Program-made: the position numbers and the translations under genes
Notes under the pieces: generated by a model
Databases searched by the model: none
Told to the model about the DNA's origin: nothing
What the model saw: the letters and a program-made list of their open reading frames with translations, nothing else
DNA from: Prevotella sp. oral taxon 299 str. F0039
GTDB taxonomy: Bacteria; Bacteroidota; Bacteroidia; Bacteroidales; Bacteroidaceae
NCBI RefSeq assembly: GCF_000163055.2
Contig: NC_022111.1
Span: forward strand, 558,001 to 622,000
DNA: 64,000 bases
Direction: 5' to 3'
Shown: positions 1,785 through 62,662 of the stretch, in pieces
Numbering within the stretch: the first letter of the stretch is position 1
Layout of the letters: each line of letters starts with the position of its first letter

Positions 1785-2876
1785 ATGATGAACACAACAG
1801 CAAAAGAATATCTTTGTGGTTTAAAACGCTCAGACTTTCAAACCACAATTGACGGCAAAGAGACTGATTTGTTTCTTTTGACTAATGAGAATGGAAACGA
1901 AGTTGCCATAAGCAATTATGGTGGTGCAATTGTTTCTATTATGGTACCCGATAAAAATGGAAATTATGCCAATGTTATTCAGAGTCATGATAGTATCCAA
2001 AGTTTAATTAATTCGCCAGAACCTTATTTGTCTACATTGATTGGACGATATGGAAATCGTATTGCAAAAGGTCGTTTCCAGTTAGATAAGAAGGAATATT
2101 TTTTGCATATTAATAATGGTCCTAATTCTCTACATGGAGGTAAAACGGGTTTTAATGCAAAAGTCTGGGATGCTCTCCAAATGAACAATCACACATTGGT
2201 TTTGAAGTATATCAGTCCTTATGGAGAAGAAGGTTATTCTGGAGAAGTAAAAATAACGGTGGTATATACCTTCACAAATGACGATGAATTGGTTATTGAA
2301 TATATGGCAACTACCAATAAAAAGACCATTATTAACCTTACTAGTCACGGATTCTTTTCATTAACAGGCATTGGAAATCCAACTCCAACTATTGATACTT
2401 TAGAGTGCGAAATCAATGCAAACTATTATCTTCCAATTGATGATACATCTATTCCTACTGGTGAAATACGTTTTGTAGAAGGTACTCCCTTTGACTTTAG
2501 AACATCAAAAGCTGTTGGAAAAGATATTGATGCAAACCATGAACAAATAAAGAATGGTGCAGGTTACGACCATTGTTTTGTTCTAAATAAGAAGGAAGAA
2601 GGTGAGCTGAGCTTTGCTGCAAGAATTAAAGAACCAGTTTCAGGACGCACAATGGAAGTGTATACAACAGAACCTGGCATGCAATTCTATTCAGATAACT
2701 GGGCAGATGGTTTCGCAGGACAACACGGTGCAACTTATCCACGACGCAGTGCAGTATGTTTTGAAGCACAACACTTCCCCGATACTCCTAATCATTCATA
2801 TTTCCCTTCTGTAGTATTACGTCCAGGAGAGCAATATAAACAAAAAACAATCTATAAATTCGGAGTAGAGAAGTAA
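1785..2876 (+). CDS. galM: Aldose 1-epimerase (galactose mutarotase)
   Basis: Interconverts the alpha and beta anomers of galactose and glucose so that galactokinase receives its alpha substrate. At 363 residues it has normal length. Catalytic residues of the family are in place: His117 in LHGG, His188 in INLTSHGFF and the general base Glu327 in CFEAQHFPDTPNH. There is no signal peptide, unlike several secreted Bacteroides mutarotases, so it should act in the cytoplasm. Two ATGs occur in tandem (1785, 1788); either may be used. It is the first gene of a galM-transporter-galK unit, an order also known in Bacteroides, which strongly supports a role in galactose use. Confidence 0.95.
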   Translation: MMNTTAKEYLCGLKRSDFQTTIDGKETDLFLLTNENGNEVAISNYGGAIVSIMVPDKNGNYANVIQSHDSIQSLINSPEPYLSTLIGRYGNRIAKGRFQLDKKEYFLHINNGPNSLHGGKTGFNAKVWDALQMNNHTLVLKYISPYGEEGYSGEVKITVVYTFTNDDELVIEYMATTNKKTIINLTSHGFFSLTGIGNPTPTIDTLECEINANYYLPIDDTSIPTGEIRFVEGTPFDFRTSKAVGKDIDANHEQIKNGAGYDHCFVLNKKEEGELSFAARIKEPVSGRTMEVYTTEPGMQFYSDNWADGFAGQHGATYPRRSAVCFEAQHFPDTPNHSYFPSVVLRPGEQYKQKTIYKFGVEK

Positions 2877-3032
2877 GCCAAGATATAAAACTATTTATCG
2901 TATGTTCTCAGTATTATTGAAGATTGCAGAACCGTATCTTAGTAGAAACAACCGCTATAAAGTATTTTGTAATTTATAAATACTCGAGAATAACAAACTA
3001 AAAACTAAAAATAATAAATAAATAACTAGAAA

Positions 3033-4346
3033 ATGGAAAAAGTAAAGAAGCAACAAGGAAGCATTATTGCTATTATAACAATGATGTTTTTGTATGCAAT
3101 GATTTCGTTTGTAACAAACTTAGCTGCACCAATTGGTGTGATTTGGAAAGGTGCTTTCCAAGGAGAAAGTGCTAACGTTGTAGGTATGTTAGGTAATGCT
3201 ATGAACTTCTTGGCTTATCTTTTCATGGGTATTCCTGCAGGAAAACTATTGACAAAGATTGGTTATAAGAAGACTGCATTGGTTGGTATCGCTTTTGGTT
3301 TCGTGGGAGTGTTCGTACAATTCCTTTCAGGAGCTATCGGTTCTTCTTCTAACTACACAGGTTTTACAATTTATCTATTAGGTGCATTCATTGCAGGTTT
3401 CTCTGTATGTATCCTAAATACTGTTGTAAATCCAATGCTTAACCTACTCGGTGGTGGTGGAAATCGTGGTAACCAACTTAACCTTATCGGTGGTACACTT
3501 AACTCTTTGACAGGTACTTTGACTCCAATCTTCGTAGGAGCATTGATTGGTACCGTAACTGCAAGCACAAAGATTGCAGACGTTAACATGGTGTTATACA
3601 TTGCAATGGCTGTATTTGTATTGGCTTTTGTCGTTCTTTTGTTCATTCCTATCTCAGATCCAGAAGGTGCTTCTGTTACAGAATCAACTGTATTTGAGGC
3701 AAGTCCATGGTCATTCCGTCACTTCGTACTTGGTGCTATCGGTATTTTCCTATATGTAGGTATCGAAGTTGGTATTCCAGGAACACTTATTTTCTATCTT
3801 TCTGATACTACAGAAAAAGGTGGTGGTATCTTAGGTAACGCAACCTCTATTGCAGGAACCGTTGCAGCTACATACTGGTTCTTGATGCTTGTAGGTCGTT
3901 TCACTGCAGGGTTCATTGCAAACAAAGTATCAAGTAAAGCAATGATGATAACCACAAGTGGTGTCGGAGTTTTCCTTATACTTATTGCTATGTTTGTGCA
4001 AAGTGCTGACAAGATCTTTATGCCAGTGTTTACAGGGCAGTCTTTCGAAATGGTTCAAGTGCCATTAGCTGCATTATTTCTTGTTCTATGTGGTTTATGC
4101 ACTTCGGTAATGTGGCCTTCGGTATTTAATCTTGCAACAGAAGGATTAGGTAAATACACAGCAGCTGCATCAGGAATCTTCATGATGATGGTAGTAGGTG
4201 GAGGAGTATTGCCACTTATCCAATCATTCATCGCAGACAAATCAGGCTATTTGATTTCATATATCGTGCCTCTAGCAGGTTTGGCTTACCTCTTCTTCTA
4301 TGCAATCATAGGAAGCAAGAACATCAATAAAGATATTCCAGTTTAA
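3033..4346 (+). CDS. MFS glucose/galactose (FucP-type) sugar symporter
   Basis: A 437-residue inner-membrane protein with about 12 predicted membrane segments and no signal peptide, resembling the FucP/GluP branch of the major facilitator superfamily that imports hexoses with protons. Visible family traits are the N-terminal FVTNLAAPIGVIWK segment, the cytoplasmic loop GIPAGKLLTKIGYKKTAL (an MFS loop 2-3 motif) and the glycine-rich segment LLGGGGNRGNQLN. It sits between galM and galK with a gap of 156 nt upstream and 76 nt downstream, so galactose is the probable substrate; glucose or both cannot be excluded from sequence. Confidence 0.88.
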   Translation: MEKVKKQQGSIIAIITMMFLYAMISFVTNLAAPIGVIWKGAFQGESANVVGMLGNAMNFLAYLFMGIPAGKLLTKIGYKKTALVGIAFGFVGVFVQFLSGAIGSSSNYTGFTIYLLGAFIAGFSVCILNTVVNPMLNLLGGGGNRGNQLNLIGGTLNSLTGTLTPIFVGALIGTVTASTKIADVNMVLYIAMAVFVLAFVVLLFIPISDPEGASVTESTVFEASPWSFRHFVLGAIGIFLYVGIEVGIPGTLIFYLSDTTEKGGGILGNATSIAGTVAATYWFLMLVGRFTAGFIANKVSSKAMMITTSGVGVFLILIAMFVQSADKIFMPVFTGQSFEMVQVPLAALFLVLCGLCTSVMWPSVFNLATEGLGKYTAAASGIFMMMVVGGGVLPLIQSFIADKSGYLISYIVPLAGLAYLFFYAIIGSKNINKDIPV

Positions 4347-4422
4347 TTAAACATATAATGAACCTTGCCCTGTCAATGTGCAAGGTTCACTATTATCGTT
4401 AACCCCTTTAATACAAGTAAGT

Positions 4423-5583
4423 ATGGACATCGAACACGTAAGAAGTAGATTCATCAAACATTTTGATGGAAAGACAGGTAATATTTATGCTTCACCTGGT
4501 CGTATTAACCTTATAGGAGAGCACACTGATTATAACGGAGGATTTGTTTTCCCAGGTGCAGTAGATAAAGGTATTATGGCAGAAGTGCGCCCAAATGGAA
4601 CTGATACGGTAATGTGCTATTCAATAGACCTTAAAGATCGTGTTGAATTTAAAGTAACAGATCCAGAAAGTCCACATACTTCATGGGCAAAATATATTTA
4701 TGGTATTGTTCAAGAAATGCGCAAACTAGGTGTTGATGTAAAAGGTTTCAACACAGCATTTGCTGGAGATGTGCCCTTAGGAGCAGGTATGTCATCATCA
4801 GCAGCACTTGAAAGTTGTTTTGCTTTTGCATTAAACGATCTTTTCGGAGATAACAAAATTGCGAAGTGGGACATGGTTTTAGCTGGTCAAGCAACCGAAC
4901 ATAACTATGTAGGTGTTAAGTGCGGAATCATGGATCAATTTGCAAGTGTATTTGGAAAAGAAGGAAAATTGATGCGACTAGATTGTCGTTCAAGAGAATT
5001 TGAATATTTCCCATTCGATCCCAAGGGCTATCGTTTAGTGCTTGTTGATTCAAAAGTAAAACACGAATTGGCTTCTTCTGCATATAACAAACGCCGTCAA
5101 AGCTGTGAAAATGTAGTAGCAGAACTTCAAAAGAAATATGCAGACAAGGTGATTGAAACACTTCGTGATGCAGATTGGGATATGCTTGAATCAGTGAGAA
5201 CTAATGTTTCTGAAGAAGATTACAAGCGTGCTCATTTCGTATTAGGTGAGAAAGACAGAGTTCTTGCAGTATGTGATGCACTTGAAAAAGGCGACTATGA
5301 AACAGTAGGAGCTAAGATGTATGAAACTCATCACGGTTTAAGCAAAGAATATGAAGTATCTTGTGAAGAACTAGATTACCTCAATGAAGTTGCTAAAGAA
5401 AATGGAGTTACAGGTAGTAGAATTATGGGTGGAGGCTTCGGAGGCTGCACAATTAACCTTGTAAAAGAAGAACTTTACGACAAATTTATTGCAGATGCTA
5501 AAGCAAAATACGAAGCAAAGTATGGTAAAACACCTGCTGTTTACGACGTAGTAATTAGCGAAGGCTCTAGAAGAATATCATAA
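4423..5583 (+). CDS. galK: Galactokinase
   Basis: Phosphorylates alpha-D-galactose with ATP to galactose-1-phosphate, the committed Leloir step. From the ATG at 4423 it is 386 residues, the usual length. GHMP-kinase signatures are clear: galactose-binding GRINLIGEHTDYNGG (26-40), the phosphate loop PLGAGMSSSAAL (about 117-128) and the C-terminal GSRIMGGGFGGCT motif. The frame is open upstream to 4378, but residues coded there do not resemble the family N-terminus, so MDIEHVRSRF is chosen as the start. galT and galE are not in the window. Confidence 0.96.
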   Translation: MDIEHVRSRFIKHFDGKTGNIYASPGRINLIGEHTDYNGGFVFPGAVDKGIMAEVRPNGTDTVMCYSIDLKDRVEFKVTDPESPHTSWAKYIYGIVQEMRKLGVDVKGFNTAFAGDVPLGAGMSSSAALESCFAFALNDLFGDNKIAKWDMVLAGQATEHNYVGVKCGIMDQFASVFGKEGKLMRLDCRSREFEYFPFDPKGYRLVLVDSKVKHELASSAYNKRRQSCENVVAELQKKYADKVIETLRDADWDMLESVRTNVSEEDYKRAHFVLGEKDRVLAVCDALEKGDYETVGAKMYETHHGLSKEYEVSCEELDYLNEVAKENGVTGSRIMGGGFGGCTINLVKEELYDKFIADAKAKYEAKYGKTPAVYDVVISEGSRRIS

Positions 5584-40997: not shown

Positions 40998-41386
40998 AGA
41001 AAGATAACTTGTATAGTGGAAAAAGATAGAATATATTTTTGTTTCTAAAAAGATTGCTTTTTGAATGTAATAGTAATGCTTTTAAGATACAAAATCAATA
41101 TTTTTGTGATGTAATATCAATGAGTTTATAATTAAACATAATAGAAGTGTATTCTTACTACTAAGAAGATGCACTTTTGTTATTTGTATGATTGAAAGAT
41201 AGAGTAAGGAAAAGAATAAATCAAGAATATTCTTTGAGAAATGTGTATCTTGTAGAAAGATAATGAAGATTATTTTTTTATCTCTTGATTATTATAATAA
41301 AAGAAAATTCTATGATGGATTTGAAAACATATATTCAAAACTTCATAGAATTTTCTCTTATTATCTAAATGCAATAAAACAAGCTT
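40998..41386. other. Convergent intergenic region
   Basis: 389 nt between the kinase fusion and glgP. No gene seen. It contains the strong hairpin at 41303-41355. The remainder is AT-rich with several poly-A/T runs. Confidence 0.5.
41303..41355 (-). terminator. glgP terminator-like double hairpin
   Basis: GAAAATTCTATGA (41303-41315) and TCATAGAATTTTC (41343-41355) are a perfect 13-bp stem; inside it TTTGAA/TTCAAA forms a second stem around AACATATA. On the minus strand TTTTATTA follows. Confidence 0.75.
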
Positions 41387-59271: not shown

Positions 59272-60636
59272 TCATTGTTCTTTATACCATGAACCAGTCT
59301 TCCACTCTCGCATTAAATTCTCAATAAATCGCTTTTCTTTTACCTTCATTTCCTTACAGAATTCTTCATAAGAAGTAGAAGTTTTACTTATCTCAATTCC
59401 AAAGATTGAAATAGGCGTTCCAAGGTGCTTTAAGCGTGAGGTTAGAACACTGAGTTGCTCATTTTGAAGAGGAACAATAAAGCCGCCTCTTTTGCCATTT
59501 ATAGCTACAATATAGGTAACAATTTGATGAATATCGTCTCGGTTTACCTTCCCGACCTCATGATATTTCTCCAATCTTTTATACTTTGCATCAAGCACAA
59601 TATCATTTTCTATATAAAAATCTGGATATCGTTTACCTGTATTATCATCAAAAATAGATATCTCCCCCTTACGAAGTTTATTCTCAGCATGCTGAAAGTT
59701 CAAATCTTTTATGATGGTATAAACATATTCTTCCCATAACCATGCACCATCAAACAATATTCCAGACAACTCTTTTTCGTCCTTTCCATATCTCACTCCT
59801 TCCATTCTTAAAATCTGCATACAAAGCGTTTGAAGCGCAACATAGGCAGTATAATAAGGATGAATCTTTGTTTTTATATTGCTATTGATAACAGAATGGC
59901 GTGCATTTCTATTATATAAAGGTGTGGCTCTGATGATTGTTTTTACATTATCTTTTGTTTCTGAATCGATATTTAAAATAGATTGCCCATACTTTTTCGT
60001 TTTCATAAACTCAATAGTGTGCCTAATCAATTCAGTAATATCATTGTCTTGCGCATATTCACGAGTGGAATATGCCACCTTTCCCATAAAAGGAACATTC
60101 TTTGCAATATATTTATTGACATCGATAGTTCCCTTTATCTTCGAATCATTATATTTAAAAGTTTGATATTCTCTATAAAGTCCTTGTTGCAAGGCAGATC
60201 TTAAAAGAGCAGGAAACATAAACATCAAAAAGTCGAAGACATCTTCTTGCTCATTATTATGATTGAGATCGAAAAGATTAAACGACATCACTCGCTGAAG
60301 CATATAATGCAAAAAGTAGTCGTTACGACCGCTATCGAATCGGGATTTGATTTTTATTTTTAAGTCACCTATCCCAATAAAGCCCATCATATTACCAGTA
60401 GTGATACGCACTTTAGCTATATTTTCAGTGCTTTCTATGTTGAATATACATTCATGTAGAATTTTATCTTTTGTCTTTTTGATTGCATCGGGAAAGATAA
60501 GTAGATTGTTATTCTCTCTACAAAGAGCATCTATCGTTTTATTGGCAATAGGAAATAGAGGTGCTATTGATTTTCTATCCAACACACCTTCACTTCTATT
60601 AGCTCTATTATTGTCCGTTAGTTCTATTTTCATCAA
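59272..60636 (-). CDS. mcrC: McrC-type nuclease subunit of a McrBC restriction system
   Basis: 454 residues. PD-(D/E)xK nuclease: RYPDFYIENDIVLDAKYK (about residues 340-360) carries the Asp, Asp/Glu and Lys, with an upstream conserved WEEY in DGAWLWEEYVY. The N-terminal half is the helical part that joins the McrB ring. McrC is recruited to and stimulates the GTPase McrB at methylated DNA. Starts 8 nt after the mcrB stop. Confidence 0.93.
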   Translation of the reverse strand: MMKIELTDNNRANRSEGVLDRKSIAPLFPIANKTIDALCRENNNLLIFPDAIKKTKDKILHECIFNIESTENIAKVRITTGNMMGFIGIGDLKIKIKSRFDSGRNDYFLHYMLQRVMSFNLFDLNHNNEQEDVFDFLMFMFPALLRSALQQGLYREYQTFKYNDSKIKGTIDVNKYIAKNVPFMGKVAYSTREYAQDNDITELIRHTIEFMKTKKYGQSILNIDSETKDNVKTIIRATPLYNRNARHSVINSNIKTKIHPYYTAYVALQTLCMQILRMEGVRYGKDEKELSGILFDGAWLWEEYVYTIIKDLNFQHAENKLRKGEISIFDDNTGKRYPDFYIENDIVLDAKYKRLEKYHEVGKVNRDDIHQIVTYIVAINGKRGGFIVPLQNEQLSVLTSRLKHLGTPISIFGIEISKTSTSYEEFCKEMKVKEKRFIENLMREWKTGSWYKEQ

Positions 60637-60643
60637 TTACCTT

Positions 60644-62080
60644 CTACACCGTAGCTTCTTCATTTTCGTTCTTTTCGTAATACACGTCTTTAAAGTTTTT
60701 CAATAACTTTTCGGCATCACGAAAGCCACGAAGATATTCTTTTAACAAAGGTTCTATATTCATAGTCCATAGTTTATGGAAATTATTTCCATTCTTTTCT
60801 AATTTCTTAAAGTAAGCAGGACCAATTTGGTAAGCATCTCCCAAGCCTTCAGTTTTGGCTATTTCAGCATTTAAAGCCGCCATTTTTTCTTGTGCTTCTT
60901 GTGCTTTTCCAAGATTAGATAGCATATAATTGGTATCAGCAGGGGTTATTTCTTTCCAAACAAAACGTCTACGCATCGCAAAATCCATACACTCTACCGA
61001 TCTATCGATATCGTTCATGGTGGCAAGAATATAAACATTTTCGGGAACATAGAATCCTTTTGCAAACACATCTGTATCAGAAACAAGGTTTTGATATTGC
61101 GTCTGCACCAAATTTTCAGTCTGTCCTCTATATCCAGGGTCTATTGCATAGAACAATTCACCAAATATTTTAGACGCATCTCCACGATTTATCTCATCAA
61201 TAATCAACACAAAAGGTTTTTCATTCACCTTTTGAACATTACTAACTGCAACCTTTTTCTTTTGTTCTCGCAAAGCTTTAACTATTGCATAGATATAAGA
61301 ATCTTCCTGTCTACCATACTTGTTACCCAAATATTCCCTAATACTCATAACCTTATCCAACTTTACGTCATTTATAAGTAAGGTAAGAATCTCATCTATT
61401 TTAATCCAAATTTTTGGCGTTTTCTCGTTATTCTTATTATAAACAGCTAAGGAATTATTTTTTACATCTGATATAATAAATTCTCCTTTTGTTGCTGTAT
61501 GGTAAGTTTTTTCTGTTTCAATAGACTCCGAAATAAATTCATCTAATTTGTCTTTCCACGACACTTCATTTTTTATTTCTGAAATATTTTTCTTCGAATC
61601 TTTTAAGTTTGTGATTGCTTCACGACAAAAATCCTTGAAAATTCCATCTTTACGCTCAAAGCCTATTTGTCCATCTATAGAGTCAGTAGGACGCAATCCC
61701 TCAACAAAGTCGGTATAATCATATGATGGATGAAACTGAACAAATTTTATTTCTGCTCCCATCTTCTTCGCAACTTCACATGCCATATAGGTTTTTCCCG
61801 TGCCAGGTGCACCTGTTAAAATAAGATTATGGTTTGCTTTTAGCAAGTTTATTATCTCATCATATAATTCTTTTTCTGCCATCTTTGTATTATCTTTTAT
61901 CTGTATTTCAGTATTCTTCTTATTCTCTTTCAAATAAAGTTGCAAGGCATCAGCCAACTCTTTGCGCAATTGCCATTGAAAACCATCCTTTGCTTTCCAG
62001 CCTTTTTGCATTGTGATGCACCAATATAAGTCACTTCCATCAACATTTTGAAGCTTAAACCTATTGAGTTTTGCTTGCAC
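60644..62080 (-). CDS. mcrB: McrB AAA+ GTPase, C-terminal part of an interrupted gene
   Basis: 478 residues as an open frame starting at GTG 62080, immediately after an in-frame TAG. AAA+ motifs: Walker A GAPGTGKT (90-97), Walker B/sensor region VLIIDEINRGDASKIFGE, and FAMRRRFVWKEI; these fit the McrB family, which hydrolyses GTP to translocate DNA. Residues 1-50 (KLNRFKLQNVDGSDLYWCITMQKGWKAKDGFQW) continue the domain coded before the TAG. Whether the GTG is used by reinitiation or the stop is read through, or the gene is dead, cannot be settled from sequence. Confidence 0.9.
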   Translation of the reverse strand: MQAKLNRFKLQNVDGSDLYWCITMQKGWKAKDGFQWQLRKELADALQLYLKENKKNTEIQIKDNTKMAEKELYDEIINLLKANHNLILTGAPGTGKTYMACEVAKKMGAEIKFVQFHPSYDYTDFVEGLRPTDSIDGQIGFERKDGIFKDFCREAITNLKDSKKNISEIKNEVSWKDKLDEFISESIETEKTYHTATKGEFIISDVKNNSLAVYNKNNEKTPKIWIKIDEILTLLINDVKLDKVMSIREYLGNKYGRQEDSYIYAIVKALREQKKKVAVSNVQKVNEKPFVLIIDEINRGDASKIFGELFYAIDPGYRGQTENLVQTQYQNLVSDTDVFAKGFYVPENVYILATMNDIDRSVECMDFAMRRRFVWKEITPADTNYMLSNLGKAQEAQEKMAALNAEIAKTEGLGDAYQIGPAYFKKLEKNGNNFHKLWTMNIEPLLKEYLRGFRDAEKLLKNFKDVYYEKNENEEATV

Positions 62081-62323
62081 CTACTTTGAAAAGTTCGTTA
62101 TTTTGCCATTGAAATGAGAGGGCGTTTTATCATATTTCAGAGCAAGACTCTTACACGAAGTGGTGTAATTAGGTTCGCTAAGAAAATAAGAAAGTACTTC
62201 AATATAACGCTCTGCGCCCTTATCTTGAAGCAAACTCAACCACTCGTCTACTGATATTTCAACCTCATTACAACTATATTGGCCATTTTCAACAGCAACC
62301 TTATATAATTTAAGAGTGTTCAT
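62081..62323 (-). pseudogene. mcrB: N-terminal fragment of McrB, ended by an in-frame TAG
   Basis: 80 residues from ATG 62323 (MNTLKLYKVAVENGQYSCNEV...ITNFSK) to TAG 62083-62081, in the same frame as the large McrB ORF. The break lies inside the N-terminal DNA-recognition domain: the text runs FSK, stop, VQAKLNRF with no gap or overlap. A single base change (for example TAG from TGG or CAG) would restore one protein of about 559 residues. The upstream promoter is at 62507-62538. A sequencing error is the simplest alternative. Confidence 0.8.
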
Positions 62324-62543: not shown

Positions 62544-62662
62544 AAGGAGATAAAGATTTACCTCCTTTTCTTTACATTTTAATAACAATGACTTTACTGC
62601 GCAATATCAATGCTTTTAGGTTGCAAAAGCATTGATATTCTTACCTAAAAGCAATGCTTTTA
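62544..62662. repeat. Cluster of competing hairpins
   Basis: AAGGAG/CTCCTT (62544-62549, 62562-62567) with inner TAAA/TTTA; AATATCAATGCTTTT (62603-62617) and AAAAGCATTGATATT (62625-62639), a perfect 15-bp stem; GCTTTTAGGT (62612-62621) and ACCTAAAAGC (62643-62652), a perfect 10-bp stem that cannot form at the same time as the previous one; and TAAAAGC-AAT-GCTTTTA (62646-62662). CAATGCTTTTA is repeated at 62608 and 62652. Confidence 0.75.

What the first reader, a model, noticed from the sequence alone, without database searches (positions are those of the whole stretch)
60644..62323. In-frame amber codon splits the McrB recognition domain
The N-terminal frame ends at TAG (62083-62081) and the next codon, GTG at 62080, continues the same domain without any shift. 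All downstream motifs (Walker A, Walker B, McrC) look intact, so decay is not general. Either a very recent nonsense mutation or sequencing error, stop-restart translation (TAG followed at once by GTG) producing separate recognition and motor parts, or read-through. A stop inside the recognition domain could also be phase-like on/off control of a restriction system.
Basis: partly seen in the sequence, partly recalled or inferred. Interest (0 to 1): 0.75.

Follow-up and report, generated by a model that had tools for sequence, protein, structure and literature searches.

The report
Restriction gene with a premature stop
A bacterial DNA-cutting defence gene carries one stop signal inside the part that should recognise foreign DNA, most likely an ordinary recent loss of function, although a conserved internal start site may still let its motor part be made.

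Summary
On the minus strand TAG (62083-62081) ends an 80-codon frame; the next codon, GTG, continues the same frame for 478 codons, and McrC follows. In 29 of 29 homologous N-domains examined, this column holds a sense codon and none is split there. In a confident homologue model the break cuts a long helix of a winged-helix-like domain. None of 48 tRNAs found reads UAG; no second copy was found. The halves before and after the stop diverged in ordinary proportion, so the stop looks young. Comparable lesions recur: four other interior stops and several frameshifts in mcrBC genes. Best reading: an ordinary recent nonsense allele that switches recognition off. One addition: an in-frame ATG at 61882 marks the recognition/motor boundary. 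23 of 32 fused homologue clusters have a Met there (21% expected) in A-rich, start-like context, and seven motor-only McrB clusters begin there, as E. coli McrB-S does at an internal start. So the short form and McrC may still be made; that part is inferred.

The parts
62081..62323 (-). first frame of mcrB: ATG, 80 codons, ending at the interior TAG
62081..62083 (-). in-frame amber codon inside the N-terminal domain
   Evidence: sense codon in 29 of 29 homologues examined
60644..62080 (-). same frame continued, 478 codons from GTG to the native TAG
   Evidence: PF07728 AAA_5 E 2.1e-18
61925..62305 (-). predicted winged-helix-like N-terminal (recognition) domain, cut by the stop
   Evidence: homology; homologue model; Foldseek (none at E <= 0.001)
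61880..61882 (-). in-frame ATG at the recognition/motor boundary; possible internal start of a motor-only (McrB-S-like) protein
   Evidence: inferred, not shown
61790..61813 (-). Walker A motif GAPGTGKT of the McrB motor
   Evidence: read
60998..61018 (-). McrB signature MNDIDRS (NxxD type)
   Evidence: read; NxxD as described in PMC11090510 (passages)
59272..60633 (-). mcrC, open, starting ten bases after the native mcrB stop
   Evidence: PF10117 E 1.1e-50; translation

Best explanation
This is a Type IV (McrBC-type) restriction operon whose mcrB carries a single, recent nonsense lesion inside its N-terminal winged-helix-like domain (position and intact homologues shown). Full-length McrB is then not made at normal levels, so target recognition is lost and modification-dependent restriction is off (inferred). 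The motor and McrC frames are open (shown). They may still be translated from the conserved in-frame ATG at 61882, giving a motor-only, McrB-S-like protein plus McrC (inferred, about even odds). In E. coli such a short form comes from an internal in-frame start and can interfere with the long form by forming complexes with McrC that cannot bind DNA (PMC3874153, passage).
For: 29 of 29 homologues have a sense codon there and none is split there. The break lies inside helix 68-86 of a confident homologue model, pLDDT 93.8. Pre- and post-stop divergence is ordinary: 0.143 against 0.067-0.234 for 28 homologues, so the halves evolved as one domain until recently. No CUA tRNA among 48. No second copy of motor or N-domain. 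Comparable lesions recur in mcrBC genes: interior stops in G353, G071, G126 and G140, motor frameshifts in L034, L054, L075, and a deletion with frame change in G168. A frameshifted mcrB beside mcrC is reported in C. jejuni (PMC8713573, passages). Short form: 23 of 32 fused clusters have a boundary Met; seven motor-only clusters start there.
Against: No reads or sister strains could be checked, so age and reality of the stop are indirect. Only one genome per species is held. Nine of 32 fused clusters lack the boundary Met, and six of eight distant fused McrBs lack it; it may be a scar of domain fusion rather than a used start. The main ATG 62323 also has T at -3, so start context is a weak guide.
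Confidence: 0.8

Rival explanations
1. Sequencing or assembly base error: the organism's gene is intact.
For: A single substitution in an otherwise open operon; no reads available.
Against: The genome is in two contigs at 99.99% completeness, and similar interior stops occur in other genomes, some of them draft assemblies, so error there is not excluded either.
Confidence: 0.1
2. Stop-restart: TAG followed at once by GTG makes separate recognition and motor proteins that work together.
For: TAG and GTG are adjacent; motor-only McrB genes exist in nature, seven clusters.
Against: Motor-only genes start at the domain boundary, not inside the domain. The cut falls in a helix. No homologue of 29 is split there. 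GTG has T at -3 and 40% A upstream against 65% at ATG 61882.
Confidence: 0.04
3. Read-through of TAG, by the host or by a suppressor tRNA that an infecting phage brings.
For: Four of the five other-or-own interior stops that I found in mcrBC genes are TAG (window, G353, G071, G126) and one is TAA (G140); crAss-like gut phages read TAG as glutamine and carry predicted suppressor tRNAs (PMC9523058, abstract and passages).
Against: Four of five is only nominally unusual (0.047 with a TAG share of 0.336 by single substitutions) and the count is post hoc. None of 48 host tRNAs reads UAG. RNA around the stop folds no better than shuffles, z 0.70.
Confidence: 0.04
4. Phase-like on/off switching of the restriction system.
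For: Switching of Type I specificity genes is reported in Prevotella intermedia (PMC5608340, passages).
Against: A substitution-type stop; the one direct and one inverted repeat found nearby do not include it; no second N-domain copy in the genome.
Confidence: 0.01

Closest known systems
E. coli K-12 McrBC with McrB-L and McrB-S
   Same: GTPase motor with NxxD signature followed by McrC; possible short form from an internal in-frame start (PMC3874153, passage)
   Different: N-terminal domain is not recognised by Pfam as DUF3578/ADAM and is cut by a stop here; internal start is only inferred
Frameshifted mcrB pseudogene beside mcrC in Campylobacter jejuni (PMC8713573, abstract and passages)
   Same: mcrB broken, mcrC kept; loss of DNA recognition inferred
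   Different: Frameshifts rather than one nonsense codon; there an intact mcrB in another strain was deleted and changed sensitivity to 17 of 43 phages
McrBC-like systems of Prevotella intermedia (PMC5608340, passages)
   Same: McrBC-like operons in a likely related organism, target unknown
   Different: No lesion is described in the passages that I saw

Membership tests
McrBC-type Type IV restriction system | McrB motor with Walker A and NxxD signature | tested here: met
   GAPGTGKT and MNDIDRS; AAA_5 match; PDB phmmer hits to E. coli McrB, E 4.4e-38
McrBC-type Type IV restriction system | McrC gene next to mcrB | tested here: met
   PF10117 E 1.1e-50; ten bases downstream
McrBC-type Type IV restriction system | N-terminal recognition domain joined to the motor in one product | tested here: not met
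   Domain present but interrupted by TAG
McrBC-type Type IV restriction system | Cleavage of modified DNA | not testable with these tools
   needs biochemistry
McrB-L/McrB-S two-product mcrB | Internal in-frame start giving a motor-only protein | tested here: inconclusive
   ATG 61882; boundary Met in 23 of 32 fused clusters, A-rich upstream; no expression data
Nonsense-inactivated (pseudo)gene | Premature stop at a place where relatives have a sense codon | tested here: met
   29 of 29
Stop-codon read-through gene | A decoding tRNA in the host | tested here: not met
   48 tRNAs found by model, none with anticodon CUA; an unusual tRNA could be missed
Phase-variable restriction gene | Slippage tract, invertible segment or silent copy | tested here: not met
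   no tract seen, no second copy, no repeat spanning the stop

The most novel reading that the evidence does not exclude
In this McrB clade each mcrB gene normally makes two proteins, a long one with a swappable recognition domain and a motor-only one from a conserved internal ATG; the amber allele is a natural 'long form off, short form on' variant in which motor plus McrC keep a role of their own, for example working with another recognition protein or damping restriction. A bolder extension, much less likely (about 0.02), is that the amber acts as a gate: restriction stays off until a TAG-reading phage brings a suppressor tRNA that lets full-length McrB be made.
Probability: 0.12. Interest if true: 0.6.

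Novelty: new member of a known kind. Interest (0 to 1): 0.28.

Why it matters
As a nonsense allele of a defence gene it is ordinary, and similar lesions turned up in other mcrBC genes of the family. The wider value is a testable prediction: the McrB-S internal start, known from E. coli, may be a conserved feature of this McrB clade, so that lesions upstream of it would leave motor and nuclease without a targeting domain. The N-terminal domain is also a recurrent McrB front end with no Pfam or NCBIfam entry.

Tried and rejected
'1 TAG' counts in several other genomes looked like a shared amber. In the four loci checked first (L055, L057, L059, L066) and in L189 and L191 (G603, G422) no stop lies inside the match; the query code reads TAG as X, so terminal stops are the likely cause. 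G413 is a motor frameshift (L075). A later check found real interior stops that I had first passed over: G353 McrB, 46 codons before the next stop; G071 McrC; G126 McrC-like; all TAG; and G140 McrB-like, TAA. The amber bias this suggests is weak (0.047, post hoc).

Separate recognition genes beside short McrBs: of nine neighbours scanned for eight loci, four of them motor-only, families were mixed or absent, so no consistent split partner was shown. Of six motor-only loci searched for remnants of a recognition part, only L125 (G168) showed one. RNA structure at the stop: rejected. Selection by self-methylation: the genome has one C5, two N6/N4 and six N6_Mtase-family matches, compatible with a cost of active McrBC (PMC2614495, abstract and passages), but the target is unknown. 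Phylum-wide replication of the boundary ATG found too few relatives (3 of 395 genomes, own included). Of extra loci, four fused GAPGTGKT-type relatives (L137-L140) have a Met at -28 to -23; of eight distant fused ones (L142-L147, L149, L150) only L142 and L150 have one at -30 to -17; L141 is nearly motor-only and L148 gave no Walker A. A defence-island scan failed and was not repeated.

Full report
Observation. The minus-strand frame from ATG 62323 has 80 codons, TAG at 62083-62081, then runs on without a shift for 478 codons to a native TAG at 60646-60644; mcrC begins ten bases later. The motor carries Walker A and the NxxD signature, and McrC matches PF10117.

Setting. The window lies in a 2.48-Mb genome of two contigs, 99.99% complete. 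Named hits to the motor are mostly Bacteroidales, including Prevotella multiformis, with one Verrucomicrobia MAG; the species was not determined. The genome holds one match to the motor and one to the N-domain.

Homologues across the break. I examined 29 loci carrying the N-domain: five from the named genome scan, seven from the family search and the seventeen listed in the genus search that span the column. One search did not list all its matches. All 29 have a sense codon in the stop's column. In 27, N-domain and at least the start of the motor share one frame. L037 runs off its contig, and L086 is a stand-alone 138-aa frame that also reads through the column. So the split is not normal here, and the GTG after the stop stands where relatives mostly have a valine.

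The domain. It has no Pfam or NCBIfam match and no convincing PDB sequence match (best E 0.1). A homologue, unchanged, was modelled from a five-sequence alignment: mean pLDDT 93.8, pTM 0.87. Foldseek's top PDB matches are mostly ArsR- and MarR-type winged helices (best E 0.022, probability 0.99; none at E <= 0.001), so winged-helix-like is suggestive, not proven. The stop corresponds to residue 81, inside helix 68-86. A separate 80-aa product would end within that helix.

Age. Against 28 homologues (L086 left out) the window's identity after the stop exceeds that before it by 0.143 on average; the same figure for each homologue against the others is 0.067 to 0.234. Neither half has drifted unusually. 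With no other lesion in mcrB or mcrC, the stop is recent, or an error.

Read-through, restart, switching. ARAGORN typed all 48 tRNAs that the tRNA model found; none has a CUA anticodon. The RNA around the stop folds no better than shuffles (z 0.70). The GTG has T at -3 and an upstream A fraction of 0.40; ATG 61882 has A at -3 and -6 and 0.65. In Flavobacterium johnsoniae A at -3, -6, -12 and -13 favours initiation (PMC6847099, abstract and passages). As a caution, the main ATG 62323 also has T at -3. No slippery tract, second copy or repeat spanning the stop was found.

The boundary ATG. From 62 homologous motor contexts in the loci held at that point, clustered at 70% identity into 41, 32 are fused to at least 110 residues ahead of Walker A, seven are motor-only and two lie between, one of them the window. 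These loci are the best matches of capped searches, not a full census. Among the 32, 23 have a Met 17 to 26 residues before Walker A; the local background predicts 0.213 (nominal binomial P 1.3e-9, relatedness not corrected), and the best ten-residue window elsewhere holds 12. The window's own Met lies at -23 and is not counted. Upstream A fraction is 0.513 at these 26 ATGs, 0.332 at 492 other internal ATGs, 0.500 at seven motor-only starts and 0.411 at the same offsets without a Met. Motor-only proteins, seven clusters from six genomes, start 19 to 25 residues before Walker A. This fits either a used internal start, as for E. coli McrB-S (PMC3874153, passage), or a scar of fusion onto a motor-only gene. 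Nine of 32 lack it, and distant McrBs mostly do. A search for McrBs with McrBC or internal translation listed seven papers; I saw passages of two of them and claim nothing wider about what is in print.

Other lesions. Scanning the loci held at that point (123, with overlaps) and 30 McrC loci gave interior stops in G353 McrB, G071 McrC, G126 McrC-like (all TAG) and G140 McrB-like (TAA), besides the window. Motors are frameshifted in L034, L054 and L075. In G168 a deletion with a frame change has destroyed the recognition part while motor and McrC stay open from the boundary ATG. So lesions fall in every part, with no clear sparing of the motor. Four TAG of five stops is nominally 0.047 against a single-substitution share of 0.336, post hoc and weak. 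It keeps open, barely, the idea that ambers could be read when a TAG-reading phage brings a suppressor tRNA; such phages exist (PMC9523058, abstract and passages).

Literature parallel. A frameshifted mcrB next to mcrC is reported in C. jejuni, and deleting an intact mcrB in another strain made it sensitive to 17 of 43 phages (PMC8713573, abstract and passages).

Conclusion. A recent nonsense allele of mcrB that switches off target recognition in an otherwise intact operon is the best reading (0.8). A base error is the main rival (0.1). Whether a short motor form is still made from 61882 is open, about even.

Noticed in passing
window 62602-62661 and 41068-41127: Clusters of a short AT-rich repeat like AAAAGCATTGATATTG, 10 matches with up to 3 mismatches in the window against 2.76 expected.
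   Followed up: no
window 62544-62567 (-): Terminator-like hairpin upstream of mcrB, one found against a shuffle mean of 0.0.
   Followed up: no
L129 (G124), 1963-4741 in the motor's orientation: Two McrB motor genes in tandem before McrC, with an upstream gene carrying an HTH_26 match.
   Followed up: no
L086 (G008), ORF 1795-2208 (-): Stand-alone 138-aa frame with the N-domain and no motor match in the stretch held.
   Followed up: no
L125 (G168) 3918-5553: Recognition part destroyed by deletion and frame change, motor and McrC open from the boundary ATG.
   Followed up: partly
L084 (G353), L169 (G071), L181 (G126), L176 (G140): Interior in-frame stops in McrB or McrC homologues, three TAG and one TAA.
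   Followed up: partly
G000:C1:470899-471984: One C5-type DNA methyltransferase in the same genome, plus N6/N4 types: a possible cost of an active McrBC.
   Followed up: no
phage records H81-H88: McrB-motor-like matches in eight phage records; no N-domain match in that collection.
   Followed up: no
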